DNA of 64,000 nucleotides from Clostridium sp. AM58-1XD. GTDB taxonomy: Bacteria > Bacillota > Clostridia > Lachnospirales > Lachnospiraceae. The position numbers and the translations under genes are program-made. Where the stretch lies: the NCBI RefSeq assembly GCF_003464085.1, contig NZ_QSDR01000001.1, positions 1 to 64,000 of the forward strand, read 5' to 3'. The notes under the pieces were generated by a model. The model saw nothing but the letters and a program-made list of their open reading frames with translations. It made no database searches and was not told the origin of the DNA. Positions 26,062 through 30,618 of this stretch are shown here, one piece after another; the first letter of the stretch is position 1; the number at the start of each line of letters is the position of its first letter.

Positions 26062-26336
26062 TAATAAGAAGGCTTTGACGGAACCAAGTAAGGCAGAAGT
26101 CCCTTGTCAGAGAGCATCCGGCCGGTGTGAGGATGCATGCGGATCTGTTCTGAATACCTTCCCGAGCTGCTTCCTGAACTGCATCCGCACAGTAGGGCAA
26201 GACGGGTGCGCCCGATAACGCGTATGTGTGCGTCAGCACACGATAAGGGGTATTCTGTGAGGAGTATCCGAACCAGAGGTGGTACCACGGAAATTACGAT
26301 TTCGTCCTCTGTCCTTTTGGGACAGGGGATTTTTTA
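26062..26336 (+). promoter_or_regulatory. T-box leader (tyrosine) of tyrS
   Basis: The T-box core AGGTGGTACCACGG (26277-26290) is intact and is followed by the terminator stem CCTCTGTCC / GGACAGGGG with a T6 tract (26306-26336). Upstream, the Stem I motifs AGTA, AGAGAGC and GGTGTGA are visible. The context GAA-TAC-CTTCC places a UAC tyrosine specifier at 26155-26157, consistent with the downstream gene. Uncharged tRNA-Tyr is expected to favour antitermination. Confidence 0.9.
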
Positions 26337-26337
26337 C

Positions 26338-26480
26338 TTTCCAGGAAGGACCTTGTTCTTGTAAAGCGCTTGATTCCTGGAAAGTAAAAAGCGCTCCGCT
26401 ATGAACAGCGTGCCCCGCTTTATCGGGTACTGCGCTCGGCGCGAGAGTTCGCTTTAGCGAAGTCTTGTTCATTCTATCAA
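26338..26480. repeat. Palindromic insertion between the T-box terminator and tyrS
   Basis: CTTTCCAGGAA / TTCCTGGAAAG forms a stem (26338-26390 region) around GACCTTGTTCTTG. A further group follows: AAAAAGCGCT, CCCCGCTTTATCGGG, GCGCTCGGCGCG, TTCGCTTTAGCGAA. ATGAACA / TGTTCAT close the second part. The first arm repeats the sequence at 10880. The block adds about 140 bases to the tyrS 5' leader and looks like inserted repeat DNA. Confidence 0.65.
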
Positions 26481-26494
26481 AGGAGGAAATTAAA

Positions 26495-27718
26495 ATGAGT
26501 ATTTATGAAGAACTGCAGGCCCGCGGGTTAATTGCCCAGGTCACGGATGAACCGGAAATTAAGGAACTGATTAATCATGGAGGCGCCCGGTTTTACATCG
26601 GATTTGACCCTACGGCAGATTCTCTTCATGTCGGCCATTTTATGGCATTGTGTCTGATGAAGCGGCTGCAGATGGCAGGCAATAAGCCGGTAGTGCTTTT
26701 GGGAGGAGGCACAGGGTTTATAGGGGATCCTTCCGGACGGACCGACATGCGGTCCATGATGACGCCGGAGACAATTCAGCACAATTGCAACTGCTTTAAA
26801 AAGCAGATGGAACGGTTTATCGAATTCGGGGAAGATAAAGCCATTATGGTCAATAATGCCGACTGGCTGTTGCAGCTGAATTACATCGACCTGCTGAGAG
26901 ATGTAGGCGCATGCTTTTCCGTCAACAACATGCTCCGGGCAGAATGCTACAGGCAGAGAATGGAAAAGGGGCTGAGCTTTTTTGAGTTCAACTATATGAT
27001 CATGCAGTCTTATGACTTTTTATACCTCCATGATCACTATGGCTGCAACATGCAGTTCGGCGGTGACGACCAGTGGAGCAATATGCTGGCAGGCACGGAT
27101 CTGATCCGGCGGAAAACAGGGGAAAATGCATATGCCATGACGATTACGCTGCTGATGAACAGCGAGGGTAACAAGATGGGAAAAACGGCAAACGGAGCCG
27201 TCTGGCTGGACCCTGAGAAGACATCGCCGTTCGAATTTTACCAGTATTGGAGAAATATCGGAGATCCGGACGTAATGAAATGTATCCGCATGCTGACCTT
27301 CCTGCCATTAGAGCAGATCGAAGAGATGGAACAATGGGATGACAGCCGCATTAATGAGAAGAAAGAAATTCTGGCATATGAACTTACGGCGCTGGTACAC
27401 GGAGAGGATGAGGCGGCAAAGGCGAAGACAGCTTCATACGCCCTGTTTGCAGGAGCGGGAGATGATTCCAGCATGCCTTCGACCGAACTGACGGGAGACC
27501 AGATATCGGAAGAGGGGGTGAATATCGTGGATCTGCTCATTCTCTGCAGGCTCGCGTCCAGCAGAAGCGAAGCGAGACGCCTGATCCAGCAGGGCGGAAT
27601 TACGGCGGGAGAAGAGAAGGTCGGGTCAGTTGAAGAGATGGTGCCTGTTTCTGCCTTGAGAGAGGGAATCAGGATACGAAAGGGGAAGAAAGTATTCCAT
27701 AAGGCGGTTATGAAATAG
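26495..27718 (+). CDS. tyrS: Tyrosyl-tRNA synthetase
   Basis: This class I synthetase charges tRNA-Tyr. It has 407 residues. The HIGH motif appears as HVGH (45-48), the KMSKS loop as KMGKT, and an S4-like RNA-binding domain forms the C-terminus (LASSRSEARRLIQQGGI). The ATG at 26495 has AAAGGAGG upstream. An in-frame upstream ATG at 26465 sits in the repeat block and lacks such a site. It is controlled by the T-box leader, so transcription rises when tRNA-Tyr is uncharged. A hairpin with GCAGA / TCTGC follows at 27760-27792. Confidence 0.96.
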   Translation: MSIYEELQARGLIAQVTDEPEIKELINHGGARFYIGFDPTADSLHVGHFMALCLMKRLQMAGNKPVVLLGGGTGFIGDPSGRTDMRSMMTPETIQHNCNCFKKQMERFIEFGEDKAIMVNNADWLLQLNYIDLLRDVGACFSVNNMLRAECYRQRMEKGLSFFEFNYMIMQSYDFLYLHDHYGCNMQFGGDDQWSNMLAGTDLIRRKTGENAYAMTITLLMNSEGNKMGKTANGAVWLDPEKTSPFEFYQYWRNIGDPDVMKCIRMLTFLPLEQIEEMEQWDDSRINEKKEILAYELTALVHGEDEAAKAKTASYALFAGAGDDSSMPSTELTGDQISEEGVNIVDLLILCRLASSRSEARRLIQQGGITAGEEKVGSVEEMVPVSALREGIRIRKGKKVFHKAVMK

Positions 27719-27880: not shown

Positions 27881-28801
27881 TTGAGGGATGTTCAGAGCAT
27901 CGAATTTAAAACAGGGAGCAAGGAAGAGGTGCTTCCCGGCTTTACGTCCGCTTTTCCGTATATTTCCTCCTGTGCCCGGGTCAATAAATATATCGGCGGG
28001 CATGTGCCGTGGCACTGGCATAAGGCGGTTGAATTGTTTTATATTCAGAATGGGGAACTGGAATACTATACGCCTGGAGGAAAGCTGGTCTTTCCGGCCG
28101 GTTCCGGCGGATTTGTCAATTCCAATGTTCTCCATATGACGAAGCCTGCGGAAAAAAGCGGCGATATTATTCAGTTCAATCATATATTTGATGTCTCTTT
28201 AATCAGCGGTGTCCAGGGGGGACGGATCGAACAGAACTACATTGTTCCTGTTGTTACCGCCGCCCAGCTGGAGATCATCGGATTCTTTCCGGAGAAGCAG
28301 GGACATGAGGCACTGGTGGAATTGCTGAAGGAATCATTCTGCCTGTCGGATGGGGAGAAAAATTATGAGATGAAGCTGCGGTCCATGCTGTCGCAAATAT
28401 GGTGCGGACTGCTGGATATTTCTGCAGACGCGCTTACGGCAGCTGCGCCTTCCGCCTCTGCCGGGGATTTGGTAAAAATTATGCTTGCCTTTATTTACGA
28501 ACAGTATGCGGAGAAAATTACGGTCGCCCAGATCGCAGAAGCAGCCCATATCAGCCAGAGAGCATGCTTTCGCCTGTTCCAGGAATATCTTCATACGACG
28601 CCTCTGGAATGTCTGAAGAATTACCGCCTTCAAAGGGCATGTACCATGCTTGCTGAGACAGATGAGCCGCTTACGGCAGTCTGCCATTCCTGCGGCCTTG
28701 GAAGCAGCAGCTATTTTGGAAAGGTTTTCCGCAGCGCGGTTGGCTGCACACCCACAGAATACAGGAACAACAGTAAGATGTTGAGCGAGGCAGCTGATTG
28801 A
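27881..28801 (+). CDS. AraC family transcriptional regulator with cupin sensor
   Basis: The protein has 306 residues. The N-terminal cupin (GGHVPWHWHKAVELFYIQNGELEYY) has His residues placed as in sugar- or metabolite-sensing AraC proteins. The C-terminal pair of helix-turn-helix motifs (ITVAQIAEAAHISQRACFRLFQ; PLTAVCHSCGLGSSSYFGKVF) ends with GCTPTEYR. The start is a TTG with GGGAGGGGG upstream, as also used by other genes here. The gene stands alone and no target can be read from the neighbours. Confidence 0.9.
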   Translation: MRDVQSIEFKTGSKEEVLPGFTSAFPYISSCARVNKYIGGHVPWHWHKAVELFYIQNGELEYYTPGGKLVFPAGSGGFVNSNVLHMTKPAEKSGDIIQFNHIFDVSLISGVQGGRIEQNYIVPVVTAAQLEIIGFFPEKQGHEALVELLKESFCLSDGEKNYEMKLRSMLSQIWCGLLDISADALTAAAPSASAGDLVKIMLAFIYEQYAEKITVAQIAEAAHISQRACFRLFQEYLHTTPLECLKNYRLQRACTMLAETDEPLTAVCHSCGLGSSSYFGKVFRSAVGCTPTEYRNNSKMLSEAAD

Positions 28802-28947
28802 CTGCGGCGGACATCTATGATATGATAAAAAGCTGATAGGGGAAGACGACTATGAAGCGGATAATAATAGATGAATTGAAAAGACGAATCAGCTCTGTGC
28901 AGATGGTACCGATGAAACATTGTACGGAGCTTAAACTGGGAGCGTAA

Positions 28948-29034
28948 ATGCTTTTGATTTCATCGGAAAATAGGTATTCGTATCTGGATACATACGCTTT
29001 CGTATGTCCGGTTTGTGTACCAATTTTCCGATGA
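28948..29034 (+). CDS. Putative 28-residue leader peptide upstream of an MFS exporter
   Basis: ATG at 28948 is preceded at good distance by GGGAG. The frame runs to TGA at 29032 and encodes a peptide that begins MLLISSENRYSYLDTY and ends with a Cys-Pro-Val-Cys-Val-Pro segment. Almost the whole ORF lies inside a large hairpin: outer arms TCATCGGAAAAT / ATTTTCCGATGA (28960-28971, 29023-29034), inner arms GGATACATACG / CGTATGTCC. Position and layout fit a translated attenuator; function is inference. Confidence 0.6.
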   Translation: MLLISSENRYSYLDTYAFVCPVCVPIFR

Positions 29035-29094
29035 ACAGAAGAATTTTTCCGACTTGGATTGGGCTGTGAGCGGTGTTTCGCTCGCAGCCTTTTT
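28960..29094 (+). promoter_or_regulatory. Putative transcription attenuator of the MFS gene at 29150
   Basis: A leader hairpin (28960-29034) is followed by a terminator-type stem GGCTGTGAGCG / CGCTCGCAGCC with T5 (29062-29094), 55 bases before the exporter start. ATTTTTCCG at 29042 duplicates part of the first hairpin's right arm, and CCAAT (29021) can pair with ATTGG (29058). Mutually exclusive folds are therefore possible. Confidence 0.6.
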
Positions 29095-29149
29095 GCATCA
29101 CAGGAAGTACTTTTATGATATAAAAGCTTTATTTTTGAAAGGAATTAAT

Positions 29150-30370
29150 ATGAAAGAGTTAAATACGAGAGGGTCCGACTGGAAACGTTCCATGATACGT
29201 TTTTTATCTGCCCAGACGATTTCGCTGCTGGGATCATCCATTGTTCAGTACGCCATTATCTGGTATATTACCCTTACGACATCGTCGGGAAAGATGCTGA
29301 CAATTTCTACATTGTGCGGATTTCTGCCGCAGATTCTGATCTCGCTGTTCGCAGGCGTGTGGATTGACCGGTACGACCGCAGGAAGATGATCATGATTTC
29401 CGACTCTGTAATCGCCGTTTCCACGCTGCTGCTGGCCGCCGCATTTTTCACAGGCCATAAAAGCAATCTGCTTTTATTTGCAGTGCTGGCGGTACGGTCT
29501 GCGGGGACAGGAATTCAGACGCCTGCAGTCCATGCGGTCATTCCTCAGATTGTTCCTTCGGAACACTTCATGAGAGTCAACGGCATTCACAGCACCCTGT
29601 CTTCCATCATGATGTTCATTGCTCCTGCTTTAAGCGGAGCTGTCTTAACAGCGGCTTCTCTGGAGGCGACTCTATTGATCGATGTGATTACTGCAGTGAT
29701 CGGAGTAGGGCTAACGTCCACCGTTTATGTGGCCCCTTATGAGAAGAAGGAAAATGGGGAAACCTCCGGATTCCAGGAGATGAAACGTGGATTTTCCTAT
29801 CTCAGAGAAAACAGTCTGGTCAGGCGGCTGCTTCTGTTTCAGCTGACCGTCCTTTTTCTGATCAGTCCATCCGCCTTTCTGACGCCGCTTATGGTAAGCA
29901 GAACGTTCGGACAGGAGGTATGGAGGCTGACGGCAAGCGAGATGACCTACAGCCTGGGAATGGTTTTGGGAGGAATATTGATTGCGGCGTGGGGAGGATT
30001 TAAAAAGAAACTGAACACTACGATGACGGCAGGCGCCGCCTACGGAGGGCTGATGATTGGACTGGGAACAGCTCCCATATTTCTCATCTATCTGCTGTGT
30101 AATACCATGATTGGAATTACGTCTCCGTGCTATAACGCGCCTCTTACCGTAACCGTTCAGGAGGAGGTCCCCTCCGGCATGCAGGGCAGAGTTTTCAGCT
30201 TCATGCAGATTGCCTCTTCCTGTGCGCTGCCCTTTGGAATGGCCGTATTTGGCCCCCTGGCCGATGTGATCCGCATTCAGAAACTCCTGACAGTATCGGG
30301 AACAGCCGTTGTACTGATCTCTTTTGCAGTCTGGAAACTGAATTATTTCGATAAAAGGGCGGGATTCTGA
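29150..30370 (+). CDS. MFS drug-efflux type transporter (MefA-like)
   Basis: The protein has 406 residues with about 12 membrane segments. The signature between helices 2 and 3 (FAGVWIDRYDRRKMIMISDS) and FLSAQTISLLGSSIVQYAIIWYIT are typical of the MFS_3 group that includes macrolide exporters. It is clearly homologous to the transporter at 37431 (LMVSRTFGxEVWRLTAxEM in both). I place the start at ATG 29150 after GAAAGGA; the longer frame from 29015 runs through the terminator hairpin. Substrate is unknown; the leader upstream hints at induction by a ribosome inhibitor. Confidence 0.88.
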   Translation: MKELNTRGSDWKRSMIRFLSAQTISLLGSSIVQYAIIWYITLTTSSGKMLTISTLCGFLPQILISLFAGVWIDRYDRRKMIMISDSVIAVSTLLLAAAFFTGHKSNLLLFAVLAVRSAGTGIQTPAVHAVIPQIVPSEHFMRVNGIHSTLSSIMMFIAPALSGAVLTAASLEATLLIDVITAVIGVGLTSTVYVAPYEKKENGETSGFQEMKRGFSYLRENSLVRRLLLFQLTVLFLISPSAFLTPLMVSRTFGQEVWRLTASEMTYSLGMVLGGILIAAWGGFKKKLNTTMTAGAAYGGLMIGLGTAPIFLIYLLCNTMIGITSPCYNAPLTVTVQEEVPSGMQGRVFSFMQIASSCALPFGMAVFGPLADVIRIQKLLTVSGTAVVLISFAVWKLNYFDKRAGF

Positions 30371-30618
30371 TAAATATTTCTTTACGGTTCGTGTATAATG
30401 TAGCATAGATAAACCTGGCGAGGAAGAGCTGTTCTACTACGGAGACTGGATCAGAGTCCCGGGGGTGGCAATATGCAGTTGTAACGACGGGCTGAGGCCG
30501 GTTATTTTTAAGATAAAGGCTACACAAAAGGAGTCGGAAATCGATTATACGCCGGTACGCTAAAACGAGGCAAAAGAAAACGGCGGAAGAAAGAGAGAAT
30601 CAGGAGGCAGGTGCCATT

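What the first reader, a model, noticed from the sequence alone, without database searches (positions are those of the whole stretch)
28948..29149. Leader peptide and alternative hairpins in front of an MFS exporter
A 28-codon ORF with its own GGGAG site is embedded in a long hairpin, and a terminator-type stem follows before the exporter. A duplicated ATTTTTCCG and a CCAAT/ATTGG pair allow competing folds. The peptide is rich in Tyr, Cys and Pro at its end (CPVCVP), a plausible stalling sequence. This would make the exporter inducible by a ribosome-acting drug. I do not recall this leader as described.
Basis: partly seen in the sequence, partly recalled or inferred. Interest (0 to 1): 0.75.

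Follow-up and report, generated by a model that had tools for sequence, protein, structure and literature searches.

The report
Antibiotic-stall attenuator hidden in uup RNA
The stretch in front of this drug-exporter gene is a switch that probably turns the gene on when an antibiotic stalls ribosomes on a short upstream reading frame, and it gives a likely function to an RNA element (uup RNA) whose role was unknown.

Summary
The hairpin, terminator and 28-codon ORF are in the sequence, but that ORF is not conserved and is probably not the leader. Of 65 distinct uup leaders, 62 have an in-frame start codon 10-15 codons before the uup stem, 48 at exactly 13, and substitutions there are mostly synonymous. 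The conserved structure is larger than Rfam's: the uup loop pairs with UUCAUCGG, usually 24-31 nt after the stem (pseudoknot), a hairpin follows, and the terminator apex is complementary to the 3' strand of the uup stem. These leaders precede ABC-F (30), Mef-like MFS (22) and MATE (8) genes. Best reading: a transcription attenuator in which a drug-stalled ribosome near codon 12-13 masks the 5' strand of the uup stem and frees its 3' strand to pair with the terminator apex. Coding, pairing and gene context rest on comparison; stalling, inducer and direction of the switch are inferred. A new variant of a known kind.

The parts
28798..28826 (+). promoter-like site TTGACT-17-TATGAT with TG before the -10; transcript start inferred near 28833
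   Evidence: consensus scan; not tested
28838..28845 (+). Shine-Dalgarno AGGGGAAG of ORF1
   Evidence: sequence
28852..28947 (+). ORF1, the conserved leader ORF (31 codons, MKRIIIDELKRRISSVQMVPMKHCTELKLGA); ATG 13 codons before the P1 codon
   Evidence: frame, start distance and synonymous-change tests over 65 leaders
28883..28930 (+). Rfam uup RNA (RF03060)
   Evidence: 53.8 bits
28892..28902 (+). P1 5' strand (codons 14-17 of ORF1)
   Evidence: 7 of 11 P1 pairs show changes on both sides
28909..28916 (+). X1 loop CCGAUGAA, pairs with Y1 (pseudoknot)
28917..28923 (+). X2 ACAUUGU; its last four bases are P1 3' strand; complementary to the T1 apex
28920..28930 (+). P1 3' strand
28959..28966 (+). 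Y1 UUCAUCGG, partner of X1 and also 5' base of P3
28959..29035 (+).
29061..29094 (+). T1 intrinsic terminator with U run
29070..29076 (+). T1 apex GCGGUGU, complementary to X2 (7 of 7 standard pairs, three of them G-U)
29150..30370 (+). MFS exporter, Mef-like but below every Mef cut-off

Best explanation
It is a ribosome-mediated transcription attenuator built on the uup RNA. Without drug, ribosomes pass through ORF1, the uup stem P1 (with its X1:Y1 pseudoknot) reforms, and T1 folds and ends transcription before the exporter. With a drug that arrests the ribosome near codon 12-13 of ORF1, the leading edge of the ribosome covers the P1 5' strand. The P1 3' strand (X2) is then free to pair with the apex of T1, which hinders T1 and lets RNA polymerase reach the exporter gene. 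Where a second terminator T2 follows, freed T1 3' sequence pairs with the T2 5' strand and blocks it too. Supported by comparison: coding constraint on ORF1 at a fixed distance from P1; P1 and X1:Y1 pairing; X2:T1 complementarity; terminators; resistance-type genes downstream. Inferred: stalling, its site, the inducing drug, and that X2:T1 is the ON state.
For: ORF1: its frame is open at least 45 nt before P1 in 59 of 65 leaders against 10 and 14 in the other frames. Start codon exactly 13 codons before P1 in 48 of 65, at 10-15 codons in 62, none found in 3. Among the 48 leaders with 13-codon spacing, in the 46 pairs 70-85% identical, differences at codon positions 1/2/3 are 117/93/198 and single-base codon changes are 104 synonymous to 72 not (59%, 21% expected); shifted frames give 43 of 205 and 37 of 237. 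Codon 12 is K or R in 44 of those 48. P1 and X1:Y1: 92.9% of cells paired, 11 of 19 pairs changed on both sides, 0 of 500 shuffles as high on all five measures. X2:T1: 7 of 7 pairs in 43 of 65 leaders against 1.6 in shuffles, at least 6 in 57 against 19.2; 17 cells changed on both sides against 7.2, 0 of 500; at the first pair 36 A-U, 15 G-C, 13 G-U, 1 G-A and no A-C, of 65; L138 has GUAUUG with CAAUAC. Later leaders (16 kept of 46 fetched): start in frame 15 of 16, X2:T1 7/7 in 12 of 16 against 0.8 in shuffles, Y1 in 11 of 16 against 3.8. Genes downstream: 30 ABC-F, 22 MFS, 8 MATE of 65 by BLASTP clusters, representatives scanned.
Against: In the window X2:T1 is worth only -5.0 kcal/mol against -23.6 for T1, and X1:Y1 -11.0 against -35.9 for P3, so the switch must act during transcription, or X2:T1 may be a contact compatible with the T1 stem. 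Two of five pair-count measures for X2:T1 do not exceed shuffles (144 and 468 of 500). The outermost X1:Y1 pair is not a standard pair in 27 of 54 distinct rows, and one inner P1 pair fails in 14 of 54. X1:Y1 reaches 7 of 8 pairs in 53 to 56 of 65, not all. Best X2:T1 is only 5 of 7 in nine leaders (in L081 of these the finder took another hairpin), and the best hairpins of L016, L028, L032, L100 and L128 do not look like T1. The sequences are related, so shuffle counts are not probabilities. 53 of 80 fetched relatives of the exporter show no uup core upstream, among them 7 of the 34 nearest. No expression data were available.
Confidence: 0.72

Rival explanations
1. uup is a small-molecule riboswitch: the P1/X1:Y1 pseudoknot binds a ligand, perhaps an antibiotic, and controls T1; ORF1 is secondary.
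For: P1 and X1:Y1 form an H-type pseudoknot with covariation; the core is very conserved; PMC11477304 lists it with riboswitch-like motifs (passages).
Against: A fixed start codon 13 codons upstream with synonymous bias is not expected of an aptamer; most of the conserved bases have pairing partners; genes of three unrelated families share only drug-resistance character.
Confidence: 0.12
2. One reading: the 28-codon ORF in the P3 hairpin is the stalling leader.
For: It has a good ribosome site and its ATG overlaps the ORF1 stop, so coupled translation is possible.
Against: By eye, no similar peptide at that place in the 21 other MFS leaders; a hairpin at the P3 place, not the peptide, is what recurs (by eye).
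Confidence: 0.04
3. X2:T1 is not the antiterminator but a tertiary contact; the stalled ribosome acts through another refolding, for example P3 against X1:Y1.
For: In L094, L102, L123 and L151 the complementary bases lie wholly or mostly in the T1 loop and the T1 stem could persist; energies disfavour X2:T1.
Against: In the common form of T1 X2 would take about four apical stem pairs, and T1 3' sequence pairs with T2 5' better than shuffles in 20 of 24 leaders with T2, which fits a relay starting with T1 opening.
Confidence: 0.12

Closest known systems
Rfam RF03060, uup RNA
   Same: The window matches the whole 48-position model at 53.8 bits.
   Different: The Rfam model stops at P1; here it is the middle of a translated leader with pseudoknot partner, P3 and terminator, and it stands before MFS and MATE genes as well as ABC-F genes.
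mefA/msrD attenuators of streptococci (MefAL, MsrDL; PMC10314930, abstract and passages seen)
   Same: Transcription attenuation at leader peptides in front of an MFS exporter and an ABC-F protein in one operon.
   Different: Other leader peptides (MTASMRLR, MYLIFM); no uup element is mentioned in the passages seen; the uup operons have ABC-F first (five loci).
BmrB leader of bmrCD, B. subtilis (PMC4191407, abstract and section list seen)
   Same: Translated leader ORF containing alternative stem-loops, induced by protein-synthesis drugs.
   Different: Controls an ABC exporter (BmrC/BmrD); no sequence comparison was made here.
CplR and VmlR leaders (PMC10201436 passages; PMC9226507 start of abstract in listings)
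   Same: Upstream ORF and premature termination before an ABC-F gene.
   Different: The upstream ORF consensus given is three residues (MR[I/M], MIN); uup leaders have 10-15 codons before P1.

Membership tests
Rfam uup RNA RF03060 | score over the curated gathering score | tested here: met
   53.8 against 36.8 bits
Rfam uup RNA RF03060 | stands before an ATPase (ABC-F/Uup) gene (association reported in PMC11477304, not part of the model) | tested here: not met
   Here the gene is an MFS exporter; over 65 leaders 30 ABC-F, 22 MFS, 8 MATE, so this is an association, not a sound defining feature
ribosome-mediated transcription attenuator | translated leader ORF | tested here: met
   by comparison only
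ribosome-mediated transcription attenuator | intrinsic terminator between leader and gene | tested here: met
   29061-29094 by sequence; termination itself not measured
ribosome-mediated transcription attenuator | alternative pairing that links ribosome position to the terminator | tested here: inconclusive
   X2:T1 complementarity and part of the covariation measures but unfavourable energies
ribosome-mediated transcription attenuator | drug-dependent stalling and induction | not testable with these tools
   needs expression or toeprint data
macrolide +x+ arrest leaders (ErmDL, MefAL) | K/R-x-K/R motif at the arrest site | tested here: inconclusive
   K10-R11-R12 in the window; 31 of 62 leaders in the six codons up to P1
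Mef macrolide exporters | score over the NCBIfam cut-off | tested here: not met
   MefB 200 against 800, MefA 188 against 675 bits
riboswitch | direct ligand binding | not testable with these tools
   none

The most novel reading that the evidence does not exclude
uup RNAs are a widespread class of pseudoknot-relay attenuators. One strand (X1-X2) inside or beside the leader ORF is shared by three competing or cooperating helices: the uup stem, a pseudoknot, and a base-paired contact with the terminator apex. A 12-13 residue nascent chain with a basic residue at codon 12 is the drug sensor. The same switch has been set before three unrelated resistance families, ABC-F, MFS and MATE, in Bacillota and Enterobacterales.
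Probability: 0.42. Interest if true: 0.75.

Novelty: new variant of a known kind. Interest (0 to 1): 0.62.

Why it matters
uup RNA is an orphan element; [quoted passage not shown] A testable function as a drug-stall attenuator would make uup hits candidate markers of inducible antibiotic-resistance genes, including exporters that score below the curated resistance models, and would add an attenuator whose antitermination strand lies within a pseudoknotted coding region.

Tried and rejected
The conserved ATG/GTG in the uup loop as an internal start codon: considered because some leaders have GTG there; set aside because ORF1 usually starts 13 codons before the stem with a ribosome site, and the A/G change is matched in Y1 (L002 and L007 have CACC) or tolerated as G-U. 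A conserved MK[HR]C peptide as the sensor: set aside, because after the P1 5' strand the frame differs between groups (some end DE[AT]L[SF]GA). A single-family macrolide +x+ leader: motif in only 31 of 62. Plasmid and phage collections: no DNA similar to window 28780-30400. PDB: no sequence match for the MFS protein. Literature: 'uup RNA' in one paper; 'RF03060' in one paper on a Comamonas genome, listing only; searches listed no paper whose title or abstract start assigns this function. The original description of uup (recalled as Weinberg et al. 2017) is not held and was not read. The uORF4u paper (PMC10219788) was seen in its first of three parts.

Rows dropped and choices: one search kept pattern hits with a P1 5' strand upstream; L129 and other hits without one fell out. 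In one search three false hits (L004 minus, L084 minus, window 28719) were removed and L094, L110 and L122 added by hand, giving 75 instances, 65 after identical leaders were merged. L114 was never in a count; L153 had no core. One search computed all 70 rows (65 and 5 later ones) and also the 65 left after L016, L028, L032, L128 and L100 were taken out; only those 65 went into the alignment. In that alignment the Y1 piece of L031, L121 and L127 was taken at a doubtful place (offset 0). The preset rules were run with slightly wider limits (Y1 offset 3-36, hairpin within 85-195 nt), and '7 of 7' was not among them. Later sets: 6 of 24 and 10 of 22 kept, the rest near-copies by a 0.92 similarity limit, one without core. 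T2 was sought in 59 of 65 leaders: 24 with T2, 35 without; at least L107 and L116 look by eye as if they have one. Genomes in the samples overlap in part.

Full report
What is there. The region folds better than every shuffle made (100, 200).

The gene. The protein at 29150-30370 is an MFS exporter resembling Mef macrolide exporters, but far below their curated cut-offs (MefB 200 of 800 bits). It has thousands of relatives (3868 proteins among the 7996 candidates scored, the best others about 75% identical).

The family of leaders. Relatives of the exporter in named genomes (80 loci) and Rfam uup matches in genome samples gave 65 distinct leaders in the first set. Genomes with a match at E 0.001 were 15 of 391, 13 of 299, 12 of 398, 3 of 149, 14 of 199, 16 of 198 and 27 of 295, of which 15, 11, 12, 2, 13, 15 and 25 over the family cut-off; the 14 control genomes had none in each search. 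Of the 80 exporter loci, 27 have a uup core with a stem 5' strand upstream, all among the 34 nearest relatives (L001-L032, L060, L077); 53 have none. By BLASTP clusters the 65 leaders precede 30 ABC-F, 22 MFS, 8 MATE, one metallo-hydrolase (L100), one reverse-transcriptase ORF (L026) and, in three, contigs too short to tell; representatives were scanned with profile libraries. Three of the four ABC-F proteins scanned pass the NCBIfam ribosomal-protection cut-off (L015, L021, L027); L009 is just below at 365.8 of 380 bits. In L009, L015, L020, L021 and L027 one uup leader precedes ABC-F with the MFS gene 47-99 nt after it, akin to mefA/msrD with the order reversed (PMC10314930, passages).

ORF1 is a coding sequence. 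In the frame that reads the uup stem's 5' strand as S-x-Q in most leaders, 59 of 65 are open for at least 45 nt upstream, against 10 and 14 in the other frames. A start codon lies 10-15 codons before the stem in 62 of 65, exactly 13 in 48. Among these 48, in the 46 pairs 70-85% identical, 59% of single-base codon changes are synonymous (104 of 176; 21% expected), and 21% and 16% in the shifted frames. Codon 12 is K or R in 44 of the 48, although its codons vary. Where the ORF ends is not conserved: stops range from 28 nt before the end of the stem to 71 nt after it (L122 aside, whose stem was not found properly), and the frame after the 5' strand differs between groups. The conserved quantity is therefore the distance from start codon to stem, as expected if a ribosome arrested at about codon 12-13 must cover the stem's 5' strand. 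With a footprint of 15 nt before to 16 nt after the first P-site base (an assumption), codon 12 masks 10 and codon 13 all 11 bases of it.

The structure is larger than Rfam's. P1 (11 pairs) and the pairing of the loop CCGAUGAA (X1) with UUCAUCGG (Y1) downstream are supported together by 11 of 19 pairs with changes on both sides and 52 such cells against 14 in shuffles (0 of 500 as high). Examples are CCGGUGAA with UUCACCGG in L007 and UGAUGAA with UUCAUCA in L014 and L127. The outermost X1:Y1 pair fails in 27 of 54 distinct rows, so the helix is often seven pairs or fewer. X1:Y1 makes P1 an H-type pseudoknot.

The terminator apex. T1 in most leaders keeps [AG]C[AG][AG][UC]G[UC] across its apex, complementary to X2, the bases ACAUUGU at the junction of loop and P1 3' strand. 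Pairing is 7 of 7 in 43 of 65 leaders, against 1.6 in shuffled downstream sequence, and at least 6 in 57 against 19.2. At the first pair A faces U (36) and G faces C (15), U (13) or A (1); A never faces C. In L138 both sides of another pair changed (GUAUUG with CAAUAC). In L011, L013, L102, L111, L123, L094 and L151 these bases persist although the terminator's own apical stem is altered. Covariation counts support X2:T1 in three of five measures and not in two. At least 24 of 59 leaders examined carry a second terminator T2, and in 20 of those 24 the T1 3' strand pairs with the T2 5' strand better than shuffles (p at most 0.05). The window has only T1 by that finder.

Later check. With rules written down beforehand (run with slightly wider limits), 16 non-redundant leaders of 46 later loci gave: start codon in frame 15 of 16 (L152 has it in another frame); Y1 in 11 of 16 (3.8 in shuffles); X2:T1 at least 6 of 7 in 14 of 16 (5.7) and 7 of 7 in 12 of 16 (0.8; this last measure was not preset). 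These are still relatives of the first set.

Reading. The parts fit a transcription attenuator: ORF1 senses translation, P1 and X2:T1 are alternatives, T1 (and T2) decide transcription. The ON direction is inferred from the resistance character of the genes. Against it, X2:T1 is weak in the window (-5.0 kcal/mol against -23.6 for T1), so it would have to act while RNA polymerase is still near, perhaps by blocking nucleation of the terminator at its apex. In the enteric leaders (L028, L032, L128) no T1 was recognised, and control may be of another kind there. The inducing drug is unknown; the window has K-R-R at codons 10-12, which fits the macrolide +x+ motif described in PMC10314930, but the motif is not general (31 of 62).

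By eye none of the 21 other MFS leaders has a similar ORF there. It is best taken as a by-product of the hairpin.

Known or new. uup RNA is in Rfam. The one paper found that discusses it says that it stands before an Uup-type ATPase gene in C. [quoted passage not shown] Leader-peptide attenuators before ABC-F and MFS genes are known. New here, as far as the searches went, are the ORF through uup, the pseudoknot partner, the terminator-apex pairing, and MFS and MATE genes among its targets. The original uup description could not be read.

Noticed in passing
window 26066-26312: T-box leader (RF00230, 101.5 bits) in front of a tyrosine--tRNA ligase gene (ORF 26465-27718).
   Followed up: no
window 27881-28801: A gene for an AraC-like regulator (matches to AraC-family models, all below their cut-offs) ends at the -35 of the leader's promoter-like site, same strand; whether it acts on the exporter is unknown.
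   Followed up: no
L026 206-4001: A reverse-transcriptase ORF, perhaps a group II intron, lies between the uup leader and the MFS gene.
   Followed up: no
L176, L177, L178, L180: uup leaders with ORF1 start, Y1 and X2:T1 in front of MATE-like or ABC-F-like genes (by their first residues) on contigs of the IMG/VR viral collection; may be prophage or host-edge cargo.
   Followed up: partly
L100 1531: uup-like element before a metallo-beta-lactamase-fold gene, without a recognisable T1.
   Followed up: no
L028, L032, L128: Enteric leaders keep an open ORF1 frame (L028: MVCTYFKKSVTRRSSAQSKDEALFGA; the script found no good ribosome site for L032 and L128), P1 and a Y1-like site, but no clear T1; control may be translational.
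   Followed up: partly
L112 and L138: L112 keeps ACAA..UGC with two inserted bases at the T1 apex; L138 has a compensating double change in X2:T1.
   Followed up: partly
L001, L006, L010, L012, L017, L024, L030: Near relatives of the exporter without a uup core upstream; L010 has just before its gene a piece resembling the end of the L011 leader (by eye).
   Followed up: partly
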